Shown one piece after another: positions 6,620 through 61,271 of a stretch of 64,000 bases of DNA; the first letter of the stretch is position 1, and every line of letters begins with the position of its first letter. Both the position numbers and the translations under genes were made by a program. The stretch is from positions 248,001 through 312,000 of the forward strand of contig JAHBVV010000002.1 in the NCBI GenBank assembly GCA_019637335.1, read 5' to 3'. Source of the stretch: Candidatus Hydrogenedentota bacterium. GTDB lineage: Bacteria; Hydrogenedentota; Hydrogenedentia; Hydrogenedentales; JAEUWI01. Under the pieces are notes generated by a model that saw only the letters and a program-made list of their open reading frames with translations, did no database searches and was not told the origin of the DNA.

Positions 6620-6708
6620 GGGGGCTTCACGATGAGGCTTGGCTCCTGGGTTATCCTACTCCCGCGAGAGCCGGTTTATTCACGCCCGAGGGAGGAAAGG
6701 CAATCACC

Positions 6709-7602
6709 ATGGCCAGCACGCGCAAACCGAAGATTATCTCCGGCAAGGAGCTCTCCGAAGAGATCCGGGCGGAACTGAAGGTGGATGTTGAGGCCATCGC
6801 CCGCGCCGGGGTGCGGCCGGGGCTTGCGGTGGTCCTGGTGGGCGAGGATCCGGCGAGCCAGGTGTATGTCGGGAGCAAGCGCCGGACCTGCGAGGAGTTG
6901 GGGATCAACTCCTACTCCCACGACCTGCCGGCGAATTGCACCGAGAAGCGGCTGCTCGGGCTGATCGAGAAGCTGAACGCCGATCCGGACGTCCACGGCA
7001 TCCTGGTGCAGATGCCCCTCCCGAAGCATATCGACGAGAAGAAGGTCATCAACGCCATCAACCCCGACAAGGACGTGGACGGCTTCCACCCGGTCAATGT
7101 CGGCAAGCTCCTCATCGGCGAGCCGGCCTTCGTCTCGTGCACGCCGGCGGGCTGCATCGAGATGCTCCTGCGCAGCGGCTACGACCCGGCCGGCAAGCAT
7201 GTGGTCGTGCTGGGCCGCTCCAACATCGTGGGCAAGCCCGTCGCGGCGCTCCTCATGCAGAAGGCGGCGGGGGGCAACGCCACCGTGACCGTGTGCCACT
7301 CGCGCACGAAAAATCTGGCATCGATCACAAAGCAGGCGGACATTCTCATCGCGGCGATCGGCATTCCCCAGTTCGTGAAGGCGCGGATGGTGAAGGACGG
7401 CGTTATCGTGATCGACGTCGGCATCAACCGCATCCCCGACAAGACCAAAAAATCGGGGACCCGCCTCGTCGGCGACGTGGACTTCAAGGGGGTCAGTAAG
7501 AAGGCCCGCGCGATCACCCCGGTGCCCGGCGGCGTCGGCCTGATGACGGTCACGATGCTGATGAAGAACACCGTCGAGGCCGCGCGGCGCGTTGCGCGGT
7601 GA
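6709..7602 (+). CDS. folD: Bifunctional methylenetetrahydrofolate dehydrogenase / methenyl-THF cyclohydrolase
   Basis: This 297-aa FolD interconverts 5,10-methylene-THF, methenyl-THF and 10-formyl-THF using NADP in the cytoplasm. Visible signatures are the catalytic Lys region ([14 protein letters not shown]), [10 protein letters not shown], the folate/NAD interface [15 protein letters not shown], the Rossmann segment [17 protein letters not shown], and the C-terminal [19 protein letters not shown]. The ATG at 6709 is preceded by GGGAGGAAAGG; the frame is open further upstream but without family similarity. Together with metH and metF nearby it forms a one-carbon/methionine neighbourhood. Length is normal for the family. 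Confidence 0.97.
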
Positions 7603-7612
7603 CGGCGCGGGT

Positions 7613-7775
7613 TGCGCAATTTTATGGAGCGCCAGCGACCCGCTGGCCCGGTGTCGAAGACACCGGAATTCTCGCGCATGTTACTTAAGTACCGGCCAGT
7701 CTCTGAGAGGGCCGGCGATACGAAGCAATTCAATTGCGCCGGTGGCGCAAGGCCGGCGGGCCGCCGGCGCTCCAT
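7613..7775. repeat. REP-A element 1 (inverted REP pair, MITE-like)
   Basis: The element is about 163 bp. It begins TGCGCAATTTTATGGAGCGC and ends in the inverted form (GGCCGGCGGGCCGCCGGCGCTCCAT), each end itself an imperfect palindrome. Its centre contains GGTGTCGAAGACACC. It is directly repeated at 7794-7958 with a near-identical centre. A third, more diverged relative sits at 8697-8861, on the other side of the RAYT gene. Such paired REPs (BIME-like) are the known substrates of RAYT transposases. Confidence 0.8.
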
Positions 7776-7793
7776 GGGACTTTCTTGCGCTGT

Positions 7794-7958
7794 TGGCGCA
7801 ATATTATGGAGCGCCAGCGGCCCGCTGGCCCGGTGTCGAAGACACCGGAATTCTCGCGCATGTTACTTAAGTACCGGCCAGTCTCTGAGGAGGGCCGGCG
7901 ATACGAAGCAATTCAATTGCGCCGGTGGCGCAAAGCCGGCGGGCCGCCGGCGCTCCAT
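7794..7958. repeat. REP-A element 2, direct copy of element 1
   Basis: It has the same architecture and nearly the same sequence as 7613-7775: a TGGAGCGCCAGCGGCCCGC end, a GTGTCGAAGACAC centre and a GGCGGGCCGCCGGCGCTCCA end. The two copies differ by few substitutions and small indels, so the duplication is recent. Confidence 0.8.
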
Positions 7959-8045
7959 ACGTATGGGGCACCCACCACGGTGCGCCTTCGAGCGGCGCTT
8001 CATACGTATGGCCGCCCACCACGGCGCGCCTTCGCCCGGCGCTCC
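7957..8045. repeat. Two 44-45 bp direct repeats
   Basis: Unit one (7957-8000) and unit two (8001-8045) both start CATACGTATGG, share CCCACCACGG and GCGCCTTCG, and end CGGCGCT. The start of each is part of a palindrome (CCATACGTATGG in the first). They sit directly between REP-A element 2 and the 3' end of the RAYT gene. No coding capacity. Confidence 0.65.
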
Positions 8046-8073
8046 AGAGTTTCGCGCTTCAGAATGGCTACTC

Positions 8074-8643
8074 TCAGCCTTCGACTCGAAATCGGTTACT
8101 GCTGTAAGGCCAATCCACGGCGAACTCTCCGAGCCCCGCGTTCACCGGGTTGTCCTCTACATAACAAATCGTATATTCCAAGTGCTCCGGACTCCGCATG
8201 TACCGGTCGAAAACTTCGCGCTGCCACACACTTCCTCGCCTGCCGATAATCTTGTTTATTCGGTGCGCGGTATAGGACTTCCACGTATGCGTTACCTCCT
8301 CAAGTGAAGGCGACTCGAACATCTCGGCGATTGCGTGAACGTGGTTGGGCATGACACACCAGGCCAGGAGTCGGTAGCGTTCGCCATCGAAGTGGCGCAG
8401 GTTGTCTTCCACCAGGGTCGCGACTTCCGGGCGACGCAGCCAGCAGGCGCCGTGCCCTTTGTCCAGGTAGTGCTCAATTCGCCGATAGCGCTCAAGCTCG
8501 TCAATCTCACCTAGCCGCTTTGCCTCTTCGATTGCATCGAGTACCGTCTTGGGCATCGAGTCGACGAGTCGGTAGGTAAGGAACTGGATCGTACCCGGTG
8601 CATCGAAGTGTGGAAGGTAGCCCCTGGAATACCAGCCGCGCAT
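8074..8643 (-). CDS. REP-associated tyrosine transposase (RAYT), Y1/HUH family
   Basis: This 189-aa protein has the HUH-type motif MPNHVHAI (around residue 95) and the downstream Tyr in REVFDRYMRS that would be the catalytic nucleophile. It ends with the family-like ICYVEDNPVNAGL segment, which matches the IS200/IS605-related RAYT branch. RAYTs cut single-stranded REP hairpins and are thought to disperse them. The gene lies between REP-A elements (7613-7958 and 8697-8861), the expected context. It is a paralogue of 11229-11801 (both start MRGWYSRGYLPH) but is flanked by a different REP family. It looks intact. Confidence 0.9.
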   Translation of the reverse strand: MRGWYSRGYLPHFDAPGTIQFLTYRLVDSMPKTVLDAIEEAKRLGEIDELERYRRIEHYLDKGHGACWLRRPEVATLVEDNLRHFDGERYRLLAWCVMPNHVHAIAEMFESPSLEEVTHTWKSYTAHRINKIIGRRGSVWQREVFDRYMRSPEHLEYTICYVEDNPVNAGLGEFAVDWPYSSNRFRVEG

Positions 8644-8696
8644 ATTGATTCCCCTTTTCGTATGGCGTCGAATCAGGAACGTAGTATAGCAGACGC

Positions 8697-8861
8697 AAAG
8701 CGCAATTCTATGAAGCGCCGGCGGGCCGTTGGCCGGATGTCGGAGACACCGGATTTCCCGCGCATGAAGGAAATCGCGGGACTTTCAAGTGTAGACGCCG
8801 GGTGAAGCGGGTGTCCCGTTTGCGCCGATGGCGCAAGGCCGGCGGGCCGCCGGCGCTCCAT
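8697..8861. repeat. REP-A element 3
   Basis: The left end CGCAATTCTATGAAGCGCCG and the right end (GGCGGGCCGCCGGCGCTCCA) form inverted REP units around a centre with GTCGGAGACACC, matching elements 1 and 2 in layout but diverged inside. It directly abuts the displaced metH tail starting at 8865. Confidence 0.75.
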
Positions 8862-8864
8862 AAA

Positions 8865-8965
8865 TCAGGTATACCTTGCCTCGGGGTGGAAGCTGCATAC
8901 CGCGCCGGTGGTTCCGGTGGGGCTGAATTCGCTGGCGCCGGTGAGCTTCACCCCGATCAACGCAA
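8865..8965 (-). pseudogene. Displaced metH 3'-end copy
   Basis: Read on the minus strand, this stretch encodes LIGVKLTGASEFSPTGTTGA and then VCSFHPEARYT with a TGA stop at 8867-8865. It is the last about 32 codons of MetH with only two residues changed (Glu to Ala, Asp to Gly). Over 99 bases there are 13 differences from the real metH end (12237-12335), and 11 of them are synonymous. There is no upstream metH sequence, so it is a fragment and not a gene. It is a direct repeat of the metH end on the other side of the DUF4034/RAYT segment. Confidence 0.85.
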
Positions 8966-8993
8966 CACGCCCACATGTATACACGCCACCCGC

Positions 8994-10805
8994 CTACCGG
9001 GTTATTGCGTTCTTTGCCTCGCGCAGGGCCAGTTGCGCGGACAGGGTGTCGGTCCATTCCTTCTTGTATTCCTCCGACCCCGGCGCGGGGAGGGCCGCCG
9101 CGGTGGCGCGCGCCTCTTCCAGCAGCGCCAGGGCTTCCGCCGCCTTGCCCTGCCCGTGGACGGCCATGGCGTGGAAGGCCTGGGCCAGGCTGCGAATGTA
9201 GAGGCTCTTGTCGTCGACGGCCCTGGCCAGCCAGGCGGCCGCCTCGCCGTGATTACCCAGGCGGTATTCCGCCATGCCGTGGGAAAGGTGGAACCACGGC
9301 AGGAGATCGGCCTCGCCCGCCTTCGCCGCGGCCTCCACCGCGTAGCGCGTCCGCCGGGCGGCTTCGGCCAGCAGCGCCGGATCGTGCGGCCCGGCAAACA
9401 GCAGGTAGCCCTTCACCGACCGCTCCGCGTCCGTGGCGAGGTCCGCGTCCTGGTAGCGTTCGATCAGCCAGCGGCAGTGGGCCTCCAGGCTGGCGGCGTC
9501 CCCCGCCGCCGCATGGACCACGGCGATCTTGTGGCCGTGGATGGCTTCGATGGCGTCGGGGTGGTTGGCCTTGACCGATTCGAAGGCCGAGATGGATTTG
9601 GGATAGCGCTGATCGCCCGCCAGGCGAAGGGCGTCGGCCAAATGCGATTGCGCGAACGCCTCTGTGCGCTTCCGATCGAACTCCACGATATCGCTGAACG
9701 CACTCCCCTCCGGGTAGACATTCCCCAACTTCTCGAACCAATGCGCGGCCTTGTCTGAACGGCCCGCAAGTGCCGCATATCCGGCCGCATCCCCTATGAG
9801 GTGAACATCGTCCGGCGACTGCTCGAGAAGCGCCTCGGTAGCGGCCAGATGGCTCTCATGATAACTGGGATAGTCCTTGTCCGCCTCTTCGGAACGCTGC
9901 CGCTTGGAATAGAATTCCAGCGTAGCCAGCAGCTGAAAGGCGTCGCCTTTGGCTGCGGTTTTTGCGGCCCGATCATCGGCGAGCCTCCACGAACCACCGT
10001 AGAAGGTCGGTTGTCCATAGTGTATCCAGGCCATGTGGGCGTCGTAATGATAGGGGGCAATCGCGACCGCATTTGCGAAGGAAGTATCGATTTTCTGTTG
10101 GTCCTCCCGCAGGGACGCCCAGACGCTGATCAGGCGAGCATGCGGCTCCGGGTCCTCTGGGCTCATCCTCGCCGCCGCAAGCAGGTCCGCATTGGCCTGG
10201 CGTAACTGCTCACGCGGGTCGACCCAGCCCGCACCGGCAGATACCGCTGTCAGCGGGTAGCCGTGAAACTCCCAGTAATACTTGTAACTGAAACCGCCAC
10301 GGATCAGGCGGGCATGGTGTGAATCCGGGCGCGTTTCGACCCAGGCGTCCAACACTCTGAGCATGTCGATGGGATGTTCCGCCGGGGAGAGTCCACACAA
10401 ACGCTCAACATGCTGGCTGTAGCGTTGAGATTCGAGCGGGGTTTCACACGCCCCGAGTTGAGCGACGAGGCGCGCCTCCACAGCGTCGAAATCCTGCTCG
10501 ATGTAGAGCTTGGATCGCGTATCATCGTGGAGCGGTACGGTCTGATAGAGGTTATCCAGCTTCCGCGCCGCAATAGCCGCGTCCAATTCCCGCTGTTGCT
10601 CCTGGTAGCGCGCCTGATAACCCGCCCAGAGATCAGCGACTTCCGGTCCGTCCCTACGATCATGGACACGAAAGAATCGACCATCTACGAATAGAGATTG
10701 AATGAGGTAAGGCCCGCCAAGCACCGCCGCGAACGCAAGTATTCCAAGCACAGCAGCCGCGCCCGCCAGCCCCGCGATCAGGAACTTAACCTGGGAATCC
10801 TTCAT
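8994..10805 (-). CDS. DUF4034-like / TPR-rich membrane-anchored protein
   Basis: This 603-aa protein has one N-terminal membrane helix (about residues 8-35, LIAGLAGAAAVLGILAFAAV) and then a helical domain. WVETRPDSHHARLIRGGFSY and the W-rich, Asp/Pro-bounded helices resemble DUF4034. TPR-like pairs follow (AAGYAALAGRSDKAAHWFEK, HGMAEYRLGNHGEAAAWL). It is predicted to be anchored in the inner membrane with the bulk outside or cytoplasmic; function unknown. It lies alone between REP/RAYT units and is bounded by the two metH-tail repeats, so it may be cargo of a transferred segment. The family call rests on pattern memory and is moderate. Confidence 0.7.
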   Translation of the reverse strand: MKDSQVKFLIAGLAGAAAVLGILAFAAVLGGPYLIQSLFVDGRFFRVHDRRDGPEVADLWAGYQARYQEQQRELDAAIAARKLDNLYQTVPLHDDTRSKLYIEQDFDAVEARLVAQLGACETPLESQRYSQHVERLCGLSPAEHPIDMLRVLDAWVETRPDSHHARLIRGGFSYKYYWEFHGYPLTAVSAGAGWVDPREQLRQANADLLAAARMSPEDPEPHARLISVWASLREDQQKIDTSFANAVAIAPYHYDAHMAWIHYGQPTFYGGSWRLADDRAAKTAAKGDAFQLLATLEFYSKRQRSEEADKDYPSYHESHLAATEALLEQSPDDVHLIGDAAGYAALAGRSDKAAHWFEKLGNVYPEGSAFSDIVEFDRKRTEAFAQSHLADALRLAGDQRYPKSISAFESVKANHPDAIEAIHGHKIAVVHAAAGDAASLEAHCRWLIERYQDADLATDAERSVKGYLLFAGPHDPALLAEAARRTRYAVEAAAKAGEADLLPWFHLSHGMAEYRLGNHGEAAAWLARAVDDKSLYIRSLAQAFHAMAVHGQGKAAEALALLEEARATAAALPAPGSEEYKKEWTDTLSAQLALREAKNAITR

Positions 10806-11228
10806 GATTGCTTCGCCTCCACTCGCAACGGATTCTTCGATATTTATGTTTCAATACAGTCGAATACCACATCCTACACAAATCCGGGGATGTCCCGCGA
10901 GCCGCACGGTGTTAATATGTCCGAGAGCGTGTCCAGCGCCATTTCCGCATTAAACTGCGCAACCCCAGCCGCTTGTCACCTGCTTCAGCGTTCAGGCGCA
11001 CCCCACCGCTCAGCAGGCGGGGACGCCCGCGCTCTCTGCCTTGCGCGGTTACTATTGAATGATCGCGGCGGCTGGGTCGGCGTCCGGCGCCGATCAAAAA
11101 GCCTCGCAGATCCGGCCCGCGCTTCCAGCCCCGCACCGTTTCTGGCCTTGACACGGCGTAATCCGGTTGCTAACCTGTGCTACTGGCTATCCGCACAAAG
11201 CTGTTGCACCACTATGGAGGACACGTGT
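10806..11228. other. Intergenic region with a REP-B half-site
   Basis: There is no supportable gene here. It holds a REP-B unit at 11013-11050 (AGGCGGGGACGCCCGCGCTC then TGCCTTGCGCGGTTA). This is the same family and orientation as the unit at 12148-12183, downstream of the next RAYT gene. GGAGG at 11216-11220 is the ribosome binding site of that gene. Confidence 0.6.
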
Positions 11229-11801
11229 ATGCGCGGCTGGTATTCCCGGGGCTATCTACCCCATCTCGACGAACCCGAGCGAATCCAGTTCATCACGTAC
11301 CGTCTGGCGGACTCCATGCCACAGTCCTATTTGGATGCCGTGGATGAGGCGTTGCGGCGCGGCGAGATCACGGAGGCCGGTCGCCGAAAGCGAATTGAAC
11401 ATTACCTCGACCAGGGCTATGGCGCGTGCTGGCTGAAGGACGCCGCCATTGCCCGGATGGTGGAAAACAGCCTGAGGCACTATGACGGCGAGCGCTATCG
11501 ATTGCTCGCGTGGTGCGTCATGCCGAATCACGTCCATGCGTTGGCGGAAATGGTGGAAGGGTATCCGCTGGAAGATGTGGTCCAGAACTGGAAGTCCTAC
11601 ACGGCGCACGAAATGAACCGCCTGCTTGAACGGCGCGGACGCGTCTGGCAACCGGAAGGTTTCGACCGATACATCCGTGACGAGGTTCACTTTCATCGCG
11701 TTGTCGGCTACATCGAAGACAATCCCGTAAACGCGGGCCTCGTGGCCGACGCTGGAGGATGGCTCTGGAGCAGCGCGCGGTTCCGCGGGGACGAGCCGTG
11801 A
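11229..11801 (+). CDS. REP-associated tyrosine transposase (RAYT), second paralogue
   Basis: This 190-aa Y1/HUH transposase begins MRGWYSRGYLPHLDEPERIQ and carries the HUH-type motif MPNHVHAL, the catalytic Tyr in EGFDRYIRDEVHF and the C-terminal YIEDNPVNAGLVADAG. The ATG at 11229 has GGAGG eight bases upstream; the frame is open further upstream without similarity to the family. It is flanked by REP-B units (11013, 11855, 12015, 12148), a family distinct from the REP-A units around the first RAYT. It appears intact and presumably acts on REP-B hairpins. Confidence 0.9.
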   Translation: MRGWYSRGYLPHLDEPERIQFITYRLADSMPQSYLDAVDEALRRGEITEAGRRKRIEHYLDQGYGACWLKDAAIARMVENSLRHYDGERYRLLAWCVMPNHVHALAEMVEGYPLEDVVQNWKSYTAHEMNRLLERRGRVWQPEGFDRYIRDEVHFHRVVGYIEDNPVNAGLVADAGGWLWSSARFRGDEP

Positions 11802-12236
11802 AGTGGGCGCAAAGGCTCCGCCCAACCGCTTCCGCGCGAACTGACAATGGATAGAGCGCAAGGCTGGGAGCGCAGGTCAAGGACGCGGCGGAGGCGGGCT
11901 GCCCGGACTGCAAAGCGCCGAAGGCGCTGTACATCCGCGAAGGGAGCGCACACTTCACCACATATAGCCAAAGTCCCAGGCCAACCGCTAACGCCCAAAC
12001 TAAACCCATGAAGAGCGCAAGGCTGGGAGCGCAGGCGTCCCCGCCTGCATCATGCGCCAACGGCGCATGAATTGAGTTCGCTTGCGCTGGGTCTTGTGCT
12101 GAATGCGATTAATCGCAACGTGTAAATGAACGCACCTCCGGTGCGTTGCAGGCGGGGACGCCTGCGCTCCCAGCCTTGCGCGGTTATTATTGCAGGATCG
12201 GGATGACCGGGTCGGGAAACGCGTCTTGCCGCCCCC
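11802..12236. repeat. REP-B units between RAYT 2 and metH
   Basis: A single unit (GCGCAAGGCTGGGAGCGCAGG) starts at 11855. An inverted pair lies at 12015-12049 (AAGGCTGGGAGCGCAGGCG...) and 12148-12183 (the same, reverse complemented). Between the paired units sit three small hairpins: ATGCGCCAACGGCGCAT, TGCGATTAATCGCA and AACGCACCTCCGGTGCGTT. This is a BIME-like composite. No gene is seen in this 435-base stretch. Confidence 0.8.
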
Positions 12237-15200
12237 TCAGGTATACCTTGCCTCGGGGTGGAAGCTGCACACCGCCCCCGTCGTCCCGGTTGGGCTGAAT
12301 TCGCTGGCGTCGGTGAGTTTTACGCCGATGAGCTCTTCGCCGCCGAGCAGGCTGTGGATGGTGGCGTTGAGGTGGATGTTGCGGAGGCCGGGGTAGCCGG
12401 GGCTCCAGCGCTGGCCCTGGTTTGGGGCGGCGCCGAGGAGCTCGCGCATGAGCCCGTGGAGGTGCTCGGCCATGTCTTCGGCGACGCGGTCGGACAGGCC
12501 CTGGAGGAGGAGCGTGGATTCGGAATCGCCGGAGGCTTTCATCTCGTCGATGAACGCGTCCACCTGCGGGCCGCTGGTGGTGAGCTGGATGCCGATGGCG
12601 CTCATCTGGCCGCTTCCGGCGGGGTGGAAGTACTGCGAGCCCGCGACGGTGTCCTTCTTTTCGCCGCCGAGTACGACGGTGAAGTCGAAGCGGGCGATTT
12701 CGCGGGTGTGGTCCTCGGGGTCGTATACGATGACGGTGTCGCCGTCGGCCTGGCAGGGGTAGATCCCCATGACGCCCTGGGGGACGATCCAGGCGTTGGC
12801 GGTGGCTTTTTCGACCCACTCTTCCAGCAACGCGTCGAGCTTCTCCTGGGTGTGGCCCTGCTTTTCGCGGGCGGCCTTGCCGCCGTAGCGCCAGTTCAGG
12901 GAGTAAAGCGTTTTCCTGTCGAGGTGCGCGGCGAATTCCCGCAGCGTGTAGGTTACTTTGCGGCGGGCGAAGCGCGGGGCTTCGGGCAGCTCGAAGCCGT
13001 CGAACGAGATGGCCCGGCGCGGGAGCGTCTCCAGGAGTTCCTTGTCCGCCGCGGCGCGTTTTTCGGCGCGCTCCAGGCGGCGCATGAGTTTCTCCTTGTT
13101 CTGCTGGTAGAACGCGCTGAGGTCGCCCGCCGAGCGCAGCTTGTTCATCACGTTCACGCCGTCCATCGCGGTGCGGCAGTAGAACACGTTCTCGCGCATG
13201 GTTTCCGGCTCGGTCCGGTTGGCCATGGCGACGTAGGCCGCGTGGCGATCGCTCACGGGCGCTCCGCCGATCAGGATGGGGATGTGCAGGCCCTGCTCCT
13301 CCATCATCGAGGCGACGGTAATCATGTGGTTCGAGGTCTGCACGAGCAGCGCGGACATGCCGATGGCGTGGGCGTTGTGCTCTTTCGCGGCGTCGATGTA
13401 GCCCTGGAGCGGGGTCATCGTGCCCAGGTCGATCACACGGTAGCCGTAGTTCTCCAGCAGGGTCCGGGCGAGGTCCTTGCCGATCGAGTGCACGTCCTGG
13501 TAGACGGTGCCGATCACGACGACGCCCTTGTACTCGATCTTGCTGTGGATATCGACGCCGGCCTGGTTCCGCATGTACTGCTCCAGGAAGCCCATCGCCT
13601 GGCGCATGACGTCGGCGGATTTCAGCAGGTGCGGCAGGGACACCTCGCCGCGCCCGAAGCCGTCGCCCAGCTCCTGCATCGCGCCCATGAGGTGCTCGTT
13701 GATGAACTCCAGCGGCTCGTGCTTGTCCATGGCCTGGGCCACCTGGAGCACGATCTTGTCGGCGTATTCGTAGGTGTGGCCGCGGTATTCCAGGGATCCC
13801 TTGGACCGCTCTTTGAAGCCATCCTTGATTTTCTCGCAGATGGCGCGCTCCAGCGGCAGGTCGTCGTAACTCGTGCGCCGCACCACCACCGCGCCGGTCT
13901 TCCGCTCGGCGATATCCTCCAGTTCGGCGAAGGCGTCCATATCGCGATCGAGAATGGCGCGCCGCCCGAGTTCGTAGTCGTTCGGGTCGATATCCTCGAC
14001 GAACACGTAGTGGTTCGGATTGATAATGGCGGAGTCCAGGCCCATTTTCCGGGCTTCGTCGATGAAGATGGAGGTCAGGACCTTGCGCATGTAGGGCTTT
14101 TTCGCGAGGCCATTGGTCAGGTTGCCGACACCGAGCGTGGTGTTGACGGTCGGGTACTTTTCCTTGACCAGCCGGATGCCCTCCAGCGTCTCCACGACAA
14201 AATTGAGCCCCTCCACGGATTCGGAGCCGAGGGGGAAGCAGTTCACGTCGATAAAGAGGCGGTCCGGCGTGACGCCGTAGCGATCGCGGGCGCGGTCGAG
14301 GATCTGGCTGGCGAGATCGAGCTTCTCGTCGCGCGTGGCGCCGGGTCCCTTCGGTCCGGTGCACAGCCCCACGTAGCAGGGGTTGTGCGCGTTCACGGCG
14401 TCGAGCACCGCGTCAATCTTGAGCAGGCCGGGCGAGGCCTCCTCCATCGAGATGGAGTTGATGAGCGGGCGGCCGGGATAGCGCTTGATCGCCTCCTCCA
14501 GCGCGTCCACCTGGAAGGAGTCGATGCACATCGCGCCGGGGAAGTCGGTGGTTTGCACGTGCACCACCTCGGAGAGCGCGGCAGCGGTGTCGATCTGGTT
14601 CGAGTCCATGCACACATCGATCACGGTGCAGCCCAGTTCGCGCACCTGCTCGTGGACCACCTCCTCCAGCGCATCGTGATCGATGCCGGTGTCGTTCTCC
14701 ACCGCCTCGCGCACCTTGAGCGAGCCGCGCACATTCAGGCGCTCGCCGATCTGGATCAGCGTCTTCGATCCATCCAGCAGCACGGCCTGCTGCGGCCCGG
14801 AGAGATACAGGCCTTTTTCCGGCTTCCGCGCCTTCGGCTTGAGCCCGCGCACCTGGTCCGCCACACACTTGATGTGCGCGGCGGTCGTGCCGCAGCAACC
14901 GCCCACGAGGTTCACGCCGTATTGCTCGGCGAACTTGCGCTGGTAGCGGCCGAACTCCTCCGGGGGGAACTTGAACACGGTCTTGCCGTCCACCGACTGC
15001 GGGAGGCCCGCGTTGGGCACCACGGACACGGGAATATGGCTGTAGCGGCAGAGCTTTTCGACCGTTTTCTCCATGAGATCCGGGCCGATGCTGCAGTTGA
15101 TGCCGAACACGTCGATCCCGATGCCCTGCATGGTGACCAGGGCGGCCTGGATGTCGGTGTTGAAGATCTGCATCTTGGAGAACTGGTCCACGGTCACCTG

Positions 15201-15860
15201 GCAGATGATCGGGAGCTTCACGCCCGCCTCCCTCATTGCCTGCTGCCCGCCCATCACGGCGGCCTTCAGCTCCAGGATGTCCTGCTGCGTTTCGTAGAGC
15301 AGCACGTCGGCCCCGCCGTCGATCATCCCGCGCACCTGGTGGTGGAAGTTCTCCATGATCGCTTCGTAGGTGGACTCGGTCAGGTCCGCCTTCGTGCTGG
15401 AGAGCACGCGGTTGGACGGCCCGATGGACCCGAACACGAACAGGGGCCGCCCGTCGTAGTCCGGCTCCTGCTTGTACGCCTCCCGCGCCTCGCACGCGAT
15501 CTCGCAGCCGCGGCGGCTCATGAAATACGCCAGCGCGTCGTAGTCGTTGCCCCGGAAATCCATCTCGGCGTAGGGGATGGGCGCGAAGTGTGTCAGGTCG
15601 ATGCCCGAGAAATCGTACTCCGAAAGGCGCATCGGCGACGCGCCGAAGGTATTGGTCTCCACCGCGTGCGCGCCCGCCCGATAATAGTTCAAATGGATGT
15701 TCTTCATGTCCTCCGGCCGCGAAAACGACAGCAGATCCGAGAGCATCTTGAAATCGCTGCCGCCGAAGGACTCATCGCCAAGATACAGGTCTTGAATCGC
15801 GGTGCCCGTGGCGCCGTCCAGCACCACGATCTGTTCTTTCAAGACATCGAGAAAATTCAT
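12237..15860 (-). CDS. metH: Cobalamin-dependent methionine synthase
   Basis: This 1207-aa protein, close to the usual length, transfers the methyl group of methyl-THF via B12 to homocysteine. Domain order is: homocysteine/Zn domain at about 1-330 (LDGATGTAIQDLYLGDES; Zn ligands in GINCSIGPD and GGCCGTT); pterin-binding domain at about 350-620 (IGERLNVRGS); B12 cap and binding domains at about 640-890 (DVHSIG, the His ligand of cobalamin); C-terminal activation domain with RWSPGYPG that binds S-adenosylmethionine. The ATG at 15860 (MNFLDVLKEQIVVLDG) is chosen because it starts the family match and has a GGAG upstream. The frame is open 28 codons further. It is divergent from metF. Confidence 0.97.
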   Translation of the reverse strand: MNFLDVLKEQIVVLDGATGTAIQDLYLGDESFGGSDFKMLSDLLSFSRPEDMKNIHLNYYRAGAHAVETNTFGASPMRLSEYDFSGIDLTHFAPIPYAEMDFRGNDYDALAYFMSRRGCEIACEAREAYKQEPDYDGRPLFVFGSIGPSNRVLSSTKADLTESTYEAIMENFHHQVRGMIDGGADVLLYETQQDILELKAAVMGGQQAMREAGVKLPIICQVTVDQFSKMQIFNTDIQAALVTMQGIGIDVFGINCSIGPDLMEKTVEKLCRYSHIPVSVVPNAGLPQSVDGKTVFKFPPEEFGRYQRKFAEQYGVNLVGGCCGTTAAHIKCVADQVRGLKPKARKPEKGLYLSGPQQAVLLDGSKTLIQIGERLNVRGSLKVREAVENDTGIDHDALEEVVHEQVRELGCTVIDVCMDSNQIDTAAALSEVVHVQTTDFPGAMCIDSFQVDALEEAIKRYPGRPLINSISMEEASPGLLKIDAVLDAVNAHNPCYVGLCTGPKGPGATRDEKLDLASQILDRARDRYGVTPDRLFIDVNCFPLGSESVEGLNFVVETLEGIRLVKEKYPTVNTTLGVGNLTNGLAKKPYMRKVLTSIFIDEARKMGLDSAIINPNHYVFVEDIDPNDYELGRRAILDRDMDAFAELEDIAERKTGAVVVRRTSYDDLPLERAICEKIKDGFKERSKGSLEYRGHTYEYADKIVLQVAQAMDKHEPLEFINEHLMGAMQELGDGFGRGEVSLPHLLKSADVMRQAMGFLEQYMRNQAGVDIHSKIEYKGVVVIGTVYQDVHSIGKDLARTLLENYGYRVIDLGTMTPLQGYIDAAKEHNAHAIGMSALLVQTSNHMITVASMMEEQGLHIPILIGGAPVSDRHAAYVAMANRTEPETMRENVFYCRTAMDGVNVMNKLRSAGDLSAFYQQNKEKLMRRLERAEKRAAADKELLETLPRRAISFDGFELPEAPRFARRKVTYTLREFAAHLDRKTLYSLNWRYGGKAAREKQGHTQEKLDALLEEWVEKATANAWIVPQGVMGIYPCQADGDTVIVYDPEDHTREIARFDFTVVLGGEKKDTVAGSQYFHPAGSGQMSAIGIQLTTSGPQVDAFIDEMKASGDSESTLLLQGLSDRVAEDMAEHLHGLMRELLGAAPNQGQRWSPGYPGLRNIHLNATIHSLLGGEELIGVKLTDASEFSPTGTTGAVCSFHPEARYT

Positions 15861-15942
15861 GCATGTGCTCCGGGTCGTGCGGGGGAATTGGGCCGGTGAA
15901 TGCCGGAATCCGGGTATCGAATTCGCGGGAAACGGGTCGTTC

Positions 15943-15971
15943 ATTGTACCATTGCGCGGGAAGACGGGTAA
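15943..15971 (-). promoter_or_regulatory. Candidate metH promoter
   Basis: On the minus strand TTACCC (15971-15966) and TACAAT (15948-15943) are separated by 17 bases, about 85 bases before the metH start. The -10 is good and the -35 weak. No SAM riboswitch fold is apparent in the leader. Confidence 0.4.
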
Positions 15972-35456: not shown

Positions 35457-35489
35457 CATCCGTAACGGGTGACGCAACGCGTCATGATT

Positions 35490-36107
35490 GCCTGTACCCG
35501 TGGAAAACACTTTTCGCGGGTACAGGCACCGGCTGGATTACCGCATCCGTTTCCGGCTTCGGGCATCCTTGCCAGCCGGAGGCGGTCCCCGGGGACTGGC
35601 TCCCGAGCCCCAGTGCGCGAAGTCGCGAAAGCGTGAAACGATCACCGTGAAGCGAGGGCGCCTGTACCCGTGGAGAACACTTTTCGCGGGTACAGCCACC
35701 GGCTGGATTACCGCATCCGTTTCCGGCTTCGGGCATCCCTACCAGCCGGAGGCGGTCCCCGGGGACTGGCTCCCGAGCCCCAGTGCGCGAGGTCGCGAAA
35801 GCGTGAAACGATCACCGTGAAGCGAGGGTGCCTGTACCCGTGGAGAGCACTTTTCGCGGGTACAGCCACCGGCTGGATTGCCGCATCCGTTTCCGGCTTC
35901 GGGCATCCCTGCCAGCCGGAGGCGGTCCCCGGGGACTGGCTCCCGAGCCCCAGTGCGCGAAGTCGCGAAAGCGTGAAACGATCACCGTGAAGCGAGGGTG
36001 CCTGTACCCGTGGAGAACACTTTTCGCGGGTACAGCCACCGGCTGGATTACCGCATCCGTTTCCGACTTCGGGCATCCCTGCCAGCCGGAGGCGGTCCCC
36101 GGGGACT
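35490..36107. repeat. 170-bp direct repeat array, block 1 (units 1-3 and the left part of unit 4)
   Basis: Units start with GCCTGTACCCGTGGA at 35490, 35660, 35830 and 36000, exactly 170 bp apart and nearly identical. Unit 4 stops at 36107 after GGGGACT, where the inserted segment begins. Each unit contains a 9-10 bp hairpin CCTGTACCCG / CGGGTACAG(G), a second inverted pair CCGGCTGG / CCAGCCGG and the perfect palindrome GTCCCCGGGGAC. The period is not a multiple of three and ORFs do not continue across units, so the array is non-coding. No CRISPR-like spacers. Confidence 0.92.
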
Positions 36108-37083: not shown

Positions 37084-37105
37084 TGGGCGGGATTTCGCGC
37101 GGCGC

Positions 37106-37785
37106 GGGGACTGGCTCCCGAGCCCCTTTGCGCGAAGTCGCGAAAGCGTGAAACGATCACCGTGAAGCGAGGGTGCCTGTACCCGTGGAAAACACTTTTC
37201 GCGGGTACAGCCACCGGCTGGATTACCGCATCCGTTTCCGGCTTCGGGCATCCTTACCAGCCGGAGGCGGTCCCCGGGGACTGGCTCACGAGCCCCAGTG
37301 CGCCCGGCCGCGAAAGCGTGAAACGATCACCGTGAAGCGAGGGCGCCGGTACCCGTGGAATACACTTTTCGCGGGTACAGCCACCGGCCGGTTTACCGCA
37401 CCCGTTTCCAGCTTCGGGCATCCTTGCCAGCCGGAGGCGGTCCCCGGGGACTGGCTCCCGAGCCCCAGTGCGCCCGGCCGCGAAAGCGTGAAACGATCAT
37501 CGTGAAGCGAGGGCGCCTGTACCCGTGGAAAACACTTTTCGCGGGTACAGCCACCGGCTGGATTACCGCATCCGTTTCCGGCTTCGGGCATCCTTGCCAG
37601 CCGGAGGCGATCCCCGGGGACTGGCTCACGAGCCCCAGTGCGCGAAGTCGCGAAAGCGTGGAACGATCACCGTGAAGCGAGGGCGCCGGTACCCGTGGAA
37701 AACACTTTTCGCGGGTACAGCCACCGGCTGGATTACCGCATCCGTTTCCGGCTTCGGGCATCCTTGCCAGCCGGAGTCAGTCCCC
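37106..37785. repeat. 170-bp direct repeat array, block 2 (right part of unit 4, units 5-7, partial unit 8)
   Basis: It resumes at GGGGACT (37106), then full units start at 37175, 37345 and 37515 (170 bp apart), and a final unit at 37685 is cut after about 101 bp at 37785. Some units carry CCGGTACCCG in place of CCTGTACCCG. The last few bases overlap the stop codon (37777-37779) of the downstream minus-strand gene, which may mark where the array first arose. Confidence 0.92.
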
Positions 37786-40029
37786 GCTAAACCGCCCGTT
37801 CTCCACCGCGCGTGTGATCGCCGCGTGGCTGCCGGCGCGGTCGCAAAGCGCGCGGAACTCCTCGCGGGTCCAGGGGGCGCTGGAGCCGGTGGCCTCGGCG
37901 AATTCCTCCACGGGGAGGTAGAATTCGCTTTCGCCGAAGGCCATGCCGTAAAAGCCAGGGTTGGCGTCCTCGGGAAGCAACTCACCATCGATCCGCAGGC
38001 GTGGGGGACGGGCGTATTCGGCCTTCACCTTGAGGAGGCGGATGCCCGTCGTCATCCAGTAGCGCACTTCGGTGGTGTCCGCATTCGCCATCACGGGGAC
38101 GATATACCGGACGTCGGCGGCGAAGACCTCTTCCGCGCCGCGGTTATCCAGCCAGTCCCGAGCCTGGGCGCGGGCCGCCGCGACTTCGCCCGGCGTAAGT
38201 TCCCCGGCCAGGAGTTCGGGCGCCATACCGATATCCTCGCAAACCTGGAAATAGAGCCCGTAGAGGAGTTGGGCGACCGGCGGCAGGGCCTCGGCGAGGC
38301 GTTCGCCGCCCGCCAGCGTGATGGACGCATACCCCGGCTCGCCGAGGATCGCGGTGACCGCCGTTTCGAGAAAACGCAGTGCGCGTGCGGAGCGAAGATA
38401 GTGCGTGGCGGTGGGTTCGAGGGCGAGTTCGGGCGAAATTTCCATCGCCCGGAAGGTCCCCCCCTGCCGAACCCGGTGCAGGTGCCCGACGTGAAGTTCT
38501 CGCTGCTTGGTAAGGATGGTCCGGAACGCTTCGATCAGGCGCTCCTTGAAGGCCTTTGACAACAGCAGCTTCTCGCCTTCCGGCCCGCGCTCCGGCACGA
38601 GCAGCGTCTCCAGCGCGTGAACCTGATAGTCGTACCACCCGCTGTGTTCGTCCGGGGCCAGGTCCACTTCGCCGTTGCGTATGGCCACGATCAGCCGGTT
38701 CATGATGCTCTCGTTCGGAAGCCCATCGTAGATTCGCTGGAAAAGCGCGTTTTCCACCGAACCGGAAGGCGGAAACAGCGCGAGGTGGAAGTGCGCACCG
38801 ACTGTTCCGGGTGTATAGCCCTTCAGGCTCGCGAATCCCGCGCCCGGCGGATTGGTCGTGCGGGACTGAAGCGCCAGGATGGCGTCGTAGGCGTTGGCGA
38901 GCGCCGCATCGTCCTCCAGGACGCGCGCAATGCCGGACGCGATCTGTTCGGCCGTAGTCGGGTCAAACTCTTCCACAAGATTGTATTGGCAAAAGCGGTT
39001 CTGCTGGAATACGCGCGCAAGTTCCTCGCGCTCCGCGTAGTATCCGACCGGCTTGCTCTCGTATTCGTCCGCGCGGAAGCGCTCCAGCATTTCCGCGGCG
39101 ATCTCCGCCACCTCGGGCGGCAGCGCCGGCTCCTGACCCGACAGGATAAGCGCCGCCGCGACATACGCCGCCGCCTGCGCCGCCTCGTTTTCAAGGAGCG
39201 CCTCCAGCAACCCTTCGAGAAAGACCTGACGCCCGCCCCCGAGCGCCTCCGCATCGCGCTGCGTAAACAGGTCGATGGCGGCGTAGGCCGCGTCGGAGAA
39301 GGCCTTCACCCGCTGATCCACCATCTGCACCGAGGGAATCCACGGCAATCCGCGCTGTTCCAGGTGGTCGATGGCGTCGCGGTAGCTGGCGAAGCGCTTC
39401 TCCTGGACGGCCGCCTCGGCGTCCTCCACGGCAGCGAAGTCCAGCCCGATGACGGCGGCGCTCTTGTTAATCTCCAGAAGGTCGACGCCGCCGGGCAACG
39501 TGTTTTCGCCCATAGGCACGGCCTCCCAGTGGTCGGGCGTGTCGGCGAAGGGGGGATTCTTATCCGCCAGCGCGTCTCCGGCGACGTCGATGGGCGGCTC
39601 TTCGAGCTCCCGGAAGGAAGCCTGGAATCCGGCCAGCATCAGCAACACGCCGCCAACCGCCGGCGCCAGGAGGTGGAGGACGGCGCGGAGCGGCCACCGC
39701 GCCTCGAAGCGCTCGGACACCGCCGCGCCAATCACCAGCAGCGGCATCAGGAACGCGCACCAGAGGAAGATTAAGGTGACAACCAACGCGGAGGATGGAA
39801 ACCTGAGGAGAAGCGCCAGGGTTATGGCCAGGCCCAGCACCAGGAATTCTTTGACGAACGGTGTGCGACGGGGCCGAAACAAGTCGAGGAGCCGCATGCT
39901 GGCCAGCAGGTTGATCAAGGCGCCCGGGGGGACGAACAGGTGCTGGGTCGAAACCACGGCGAATAACATGAGGAGCGAGCCGACCAACATCGCCCCGATC
40001 CAGAAGATTGCGAAATTGCGCCGAGTCAT
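37777..40029 (-). CDS. Large unknown membrane protein
   Basis: This 750-aa protein has four or five hydrophobic helices in the first 140 residues (FAIFWIGAMLVGSLLMLFAV, FLVLGLAITLALLLRF, ALVVTLIFLWCAFLMPLLVI, AVGGVLLMLAGF). A large soluble, mostly helical domain of about 600 residues follows, rich in Ala/Glu. It includes GYTPGTVGAHFHLALFPPSG and ANPGFYGMAFGESEFYLPVE. No family recognised. It probably spans the inner membrane with an extracytoplasmic domain. It sits downstream of the GH5 gene on the same strand with a 180-base gap. Its final codons are adjacent to the repeat array. Confidence 0.8.
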   Translation of the reverse strand: MTRRNFAIFWIGAMLVGSLLMLFAVVSTQHLFVPPGALINLLASMRLLDLFRPRRTPFVKEFLVLGLAITLALLLRFPSSALVVTLIFLWCAFLMPLLVIGAAVSERFEARWPLRAVLHLLAPAVGGVLLMLAGFQASFRELEEPPIDVAGDALADKNPPFADTPDHWEAVPMGENTLPGGVDLLEINKSAAVIGLDFAAVEDAEAAVQEKRFASYRDAIDHLEQRGLPWIPSVQMVDQRVKAFSDAAYAAIDLFTQRDAEALGGGRQVFLEGLLEALLENEAAQAAAYVAAALILSGQEPALPPEVAEIAAEMLERFRADEYESKPVGYYAEREELARVFQQNRFCQYNLVEEFDPTTAEQIASGIARVLEDDAALANAYDAILALQSRTTNPPGAGFASLKGYTPGTVGAHFHLALFPPSGSVENALFQRIYDGLPNESIMNRLIVAIRNGEVDLAPDEHSGWYDYQVHALETLLVPERGPEGEKLLLSKAFKERLIEAFRTILTKQRELHVGHLHRVRQGGTFRAMEISPELALEPTATHYLRSARALRFLETAVTAILGEPGYASITLAGGERLAEALPPVAQLLYGLYFQVCEDIGMAPELLAGELTPGEVAAARAQARDWLDNRGAEEVFAADVRYIVPVMANADTTEVRYWMTTGIRLLKVKAEYARPPRLRIDGELLPEDANPGFYGMAFGESEFYLPVEEFAEATGSSAPWTREEFRALCDRAGSHAAITRAVENGRFSGD

Positions 40030-61193: not shown

Positions 61194-61271
<78 letters not shown>

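What the first reader, a model, noticed from the sequence alone, without database searches (positions are those of the whole stretch)
8865..12337. Segment bounded by direct repeats of the metH 3' end
The last about 99 bases of metH (12237-12335) recur in the same orientation at 8865-8965. The two differ at 13 positions, of which 11 are synonymous, and only two residues change. A local dead duplication would accumulate random changes, so the fragment seems to have diverged inside a functional metH. This fits either an element that targets the metH end and restores it on insertion (as with attachment sites at gene 3' ends), or recombination with a related strain. The cargo between the repeats is a DUF4034-like gene and a RAYT with its REP-B units.
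Basis: partly seen in the sequence, partly recalled or inferred. Interest (0 to 1): 0.66.

Follow-up and report, generated by a model that had tools for sequence, protein, structure and literature searches.

The report
Displaced end of another metH allele
Downstream of the methionine synthase gene of a Hydrogenedentota bacterium lies a leftover 99-base end of a different version of that gene, most likely a scar of DNA exchange between related lineages rather than the edge of a mobile element.

Summary
The repeat is real. Window 8865-8963 copies the last 99 bases of metH (12237-12335), same orientation, with 13 differences but only 2 residue changes. A copy that had only decayed would show about 9 (P<0.001), so the fragment diverged inside a working metH of another lineage. 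New detail: all 13 differences lie in the first 66 bases. The last 33 are identical, though comparable pairs of metH ends differ there at 3-13 positions.

The C-terminal part of the DUF4034-like gene already lies downstream of metH, same orientation, in relative G001, which has no second metH end. There is no integrase, no plasmid or phage match, and no duplicated metH end at other metH loci examined. What is unique here is an ~11 kb folD/pilin/RAYT block beside the fragment.

Best reading: a tract from a G001-like relative (3' part of metH through the DUF4034-like gene) recombined by homology inside metH on one side and joined without visible homology on the other, pushing the resident metH end downstream (homology-facilitated illegitimate recombination, as proposed for Vibrio effector loci). 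Support is moderate; the opposite polarity and the identical last 33 bases remain open.

The parts
8865..8963 (-). Orphan metH 3' end (last 33 codons including stop) of a different allele
   Evidence: 99-base gapless match to metH end, 13 differences, 2 residue changes
12237..15944 (-). metH, full length; 3' part (about the last 0.7-1.5 kb) closer to G001 than the 5' part
   Evidence: third-position scan and part trees
8994..10805 (-). DUF4034-like gene; residues 377-603 match the short TPR gene downstream of metH in G001, residues 1-376 match other DUF4034-like paralogs of this genome
   Evidence: PF13226 just below its cutoff
11229..11801 (+). RAYT-B, Y1 transposase-like gene
   Evidence: PF01797 above cutoff
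11013..12215 (.). REP-B units flanking RAYT-B
8074..8643 (-). RAYT-A, Y1 transposase-like gene
   Evidence: PF01797 above cutoff
7605..8862 (.). REP-A units flanking RAYT-A; one abuts the stop codon of the metH fragment
6700..7602 (+). folD, end of the folD/pilC/pilin block that lies between clcA and the fragment only in this genome
   Evidence: PF00763 and PF02882

Best explanation
The fragment is the displaced 3' end of the metH allele this lineage formerly had. In this model the resident order was metH(B)-REP-A/RAYT-A-folD-pilin block-clcA. DNA from a G001-like relative, carrying a metH 3' part and the DUF4034-like gene (with or without RAYT-B), recombined by homology inside metH on one side. 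On the other side it joined, just past the DUF4034-like gene, to codon -33 of the resident metH with no homology that can be seen. metH stayed whole but became a hybrid, and the last 99 bases of the old allele ended up 3.4 kb downstream. Shown: the fragment diverged in a functional metH; its position and borders; the metH-TPR synteny with G001; the 3' part of metH and the TPR part are closer to G001 than neighbouring genes are. Inferred: the polarity, the route of entry, and a gene conversion that made the last 33 bases identical.
For: Synonymous excess. G001 has metH followed by the TPR gene in the same orientation and no second metH end. Fourfold-site identity to G001 is 0.51-0.57 in metF, thiG, clcA, folD, ddl and the first 2900 bases of metH, but 0.69 in the last 720 bases of metH and 0.72 in the TPR part (pooled P 1.5e-5). 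Third-position breakpoint in metH against G001, permutation P 0.002, not seen against G002 or G003. The 5' part of metH rejects a G000+G001 pair (p-AU 0.0003), while the 3' part prefers it. The same architecture has been attributed to homology-facilitated illegitimate recombination in Vibrio (PMC5361080).
Against: The last 33 bases of both copies are identical, which this model does not predict without a gene conversion. No relative shows the assumed resident order: folD shares no contig with metH in any relative where it was found. The 3' trees do not reject the alternative (p-AU 0.12-0.15), and metF too prefers G000+G001, so the anomaly may partly lie in the 5' part of metH. The fragment itself is no farther from G001 in third positions than metH is (13 of 22 each).
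Confidence: 0.5

Rival explanations
1. Opposite polarity: metH-REP-B/RAYT-B-DUF4034-like gene is the resident order, and a segment [99-base metH end-RAYT-A-folD-pilin block] from another lineage came in between that gene and clcA, with homology on the clcA side and an illegitimate joint in the metH end; the old folD copy was then lost.
For: metH...TPR gene...clcA is the order in G001, and G003 has metH-clcA directly; the folD/pilin block is next to ddl in G001 but about 160 kb from ddl here. Half of a REP-B-like hairpin follows metH in G001.
Against: Does not explain why the 3' part of metH and the TPR part are closer to G001 than the flanks. folD is single copy, so a loss must be added.
Confidence: 0.3
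2. Integrative element or circle that inserted at the metH 3' end and restored it, with the last 33 bases as the crossover site; the segment between the repeats is its cargo.
For: Direct repeats with an identical 33-base core at the end of the gene.
Against: No integrase in the segment; the cargo is partly the ancestral neighbour of metH in G001; no other metH locus with a duplicated end; no plasmid or phage match.
Confidence: 0.06
3. Old local duplication of the metH end, followed by replacement of the metH body by a relative's allele with a breakpoint at about codon -12; the fragment is a fossil of the former allele.
For: Explains the identical last 33 bases without an extra step.
Against: Needs two unrelated events with a breakpoint that close to the end; metH keeps no other trace of a break at codon -12.
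Confidence: 0.1
4. Assembly artefact: a wrong join at the repeated REP-A unit.
For: REP-A is high copy and abuts the fragment.
Against: The joint between fragment and DUF4034-like gene is in unique sequence inside a 425-kb contig.
Confidence: 0.04

Closest known systems
Displaced effector 3' ends and orphan immunity genes in Vibrio T6SS clusters and displaced Rhs 3' regions, attributed to homology-facilitated illegitimate recombination (PMC5361080)
   Same: Intact gene, then a new downstream segment, then an orphan 3' end of a different allele in the same orientation
   Different: Here the gene is a housekeeping enzyme, not a diversifying effector; a single event; no array; the non-homologous joint could not be compared with a donor
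Genomic islands integrated at the 3' end of a gene with att repeats
   Same: Direct repeats of the gene end
   Different: No integrase, no second case, cargo partly ancestral neighbour
RAYT/REP loci (REP-associated tyrosine transposases, PMC2817692)
   Same: Two Y1 transposase-like genes, each flanked by REP units that have many further matches in the genome
   Different: Nothing shows that they moved the metH end; other RAYT-like loci of the genome show repeats but none was recognised as a copied gene end

Membership tests
Scar of homology-facilitated illegitimate recombination (displaced 3' end) | Orphan 3' end of a different allele downstream of the intact gene, same orientation | tested here: met
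Scar of homology-facilitated illegitimate recombination (displaced 3' end) | Homologous anchor: a breakpoint inside the gene, its 3' part resembling the donor | tested here: inconclusive
   Breakpoint P 0.002 and raised fourfold-site identity in metH 3' and TPR part; tree tests do not all agree
Scar of homology-facilitated illegitimate recombination (displaced 3' end) | No or only micro-homology at the other joint | not testable with these tools
   Donor and resident sequences at the joint are not held
Integrative element at a gene 3' end | Integrase gene within the element | tested here: not met
   Only a DUF4034-like gene and a Y1 transposase-like gene lie between the repeats
Integrative element at a gene 3' end | Empty site in relatives, or other cargos bounded by the same repeat | tested here: not met
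   No duplicated metH end at other metH loci (53 of 84 distinct ends held have 4 kb or more downstream); G001 holds part of the cargo without repeats
RAYT/REP locus | Y1 transposase domain, REP units on both sides, many REP copies in the genome | tested here: met
   PF01797 for both genes

The most novel reading that the evidence does not exclude
The identical 33-base end is a true recombination site: RAYT-bearing segments pass between relatives by exchange at the 3' end of metH, each carrying its own metH end, so that gene ends are swapped and left behind as orphans.
Probability: 0.05. Interest if true: 0.6.

Novelty: new member of a known kind. Interest (0 to 1): 0.27.

Why it matters
A short displaced gene end can record exchange between species-level lineages of an uncultured phylum, and direct repeats of a gene end need not bound a mobile element. 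It also shows how blocks next to RAYT/REP loci get shuffled. The general importance is modest.

Tried and rejected
Site-specific element (no integrase, no second case). Decayed local duplication as the whole story. RAYT-driven copying of gene ends: regions around eight other RAYT-like genes hold direct repeats, but none was recognised as a copied gene end; they were not annotated one by one. Placing the two copies in a tree: 66 or 99 bases are too few. Using REP families to tell resident from newcomer: both are established in this genome, REP-B also in G001 and G002, REP-A also in G003 and, as one weak match, G002. A genome-contig scan with the DUF4034-like protein found no relative. Rfam found nothing near the site, and the only tRNA of the window is at 61194. 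A paper search for metH as an island target found no clear precedent in two listed papers, which were not read.

Full report
Setting. The window is G000:C2:248001-312000 of a 7.16-Mb, 55-contig genome. Relatives of the same genus (G001-G003) and order are Hydrogenedentota bins (record titles). metH lies on the minus strand at 12237-15944.

Observation. The last 99 bases of metH recur at 8865-8963 with 13 differences and 2 residue changes. Simulated random change from metH gives about 9 residue changes for 13 substitutions; 2 or fewer is practically never reached. The fragment therefore gained most of its differences while it was part of a working metH. All differences fall in the first 66 bases; the last 33 are identical. 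Of 36 pairs of metH ends with 10-16 differences in the first 66 bases, all others differ by 3-13 in the last 33. The chance of a clean terminal run is 0.003-0.007, or 0.04 if any such run counts. The copies thus appear mosaic near codon -12; this is the least explained part.

Anatomy. Along the minus strand: metH; 21 bases; REP-B and RAYT-B (12215-11013); the DUF4034-like gene (10805-8994); about 30 bases; the metH fragment (8963-8865); directly after its stop codon a REP-A unit, RAYT-A and further REP-A units (8862-7605); then folD in the opposite orientation, pilC and pilin genes, and clcA about 2 kb beyond the window. The two RAYT proteins are 64% identical and both hit PF01797.

Relatives. 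In G001 the order is thiG-metF-metH-PIN gene-short TPR gene-DinB-like gene-clcA. The short TPR gene (72% identical) corresponds to residues 377-603 of the DUF4034-like gene, in the same orientation. In G003 metH is followed directly by clcA. Neither has a second metH end. folD and the pilin genes form a block next to ddl in G001; here ddl lies about 160 kb away, and folD shares no contig with metH in any relative where it was found (compare). So the piece between the repeats is not simply a unit that moved in at the metH end; the genome-specific feature is the block on the far side of the fragment together with the fragment.

Which side came in. Fourfold-site identity between this genome and G001 is 0.51-0.57 for metF, thiG, clcA, folD, ddl and the first 2900 bases of metH, but 0.69 for the last 720 bases of metH and 0.72 for the shared part of the DUF4034-like gene (pooled P 1.5e-5; the split of metH was chosen after seeing a window scan). 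Third-position matches along metH change significantly (permutation P 0.002) against G001 but not against G002 or G003. The 5' part of metH rejects a G000+G001 pair (p-AU 0.0003); the 3' part prefers it without rejecting the alternative (p-AU 0.12-0.15); metF prefers it as well. The simplest account is that a tract covering the 3' part of metH and the DUF4034-like gene came from a G001-like lineage, anchored by homology in metH, and that its other end was joined to codon -33 of the resident metH, whose end was thereby displaced. This architecture has been attributed to homology-facilitated illegitimate recombination in Vibrio T6SS clusters and Rhs loci (PMC5361080); the process is documented in naturally competent species and, at low frequency, during conjugation in E. 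coli (PMC3240628). The opposite polarity, with the folD block as newcomer, remains possible.

Limits. Contigs of the nearest relatives are short; only four species of the genus are held; 53 of 84 distinct metH ends held have 4 kb or more of downstream sequence. Donor and resident sequences at the joint are unknown. A wrong join at REP-A cannot be excluded, although the joint with the DUF4034-like gene is in unique sequence.

Noticed in passing
window 8994-10805: The DUF4034-like gene looks like a fusion: residues 1-376 resemble DUF4034-like paralogs elsewhere in the genome, residues 377-603 a short TPR gene that stands alone downstream of metH in G001.
   Followed up: partly
window 7605-12215: Two RAYT genes of different families (64% identical), each with its own REP family, lie about 3 kb apart, each just downstream of a metH end.
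   Followed up: partly
G000:C2 about 246000-257000: A folD/pilC/pilin block sits between clcA and the fragment here, but next to ddl in G001.
   Followed up: partly
window 35489-36107 and 37105-37786: Arrays of direct repeats with a period of about 170 bases, 93-97% alike.
   Followed up: no
L033 9526-9942: In G001 a PIN-domain gene (VapC-like) takes the place of RAYT-B between metH and the TPR gene, next to half of a REP-B-like hairpin.
   Followed up: no
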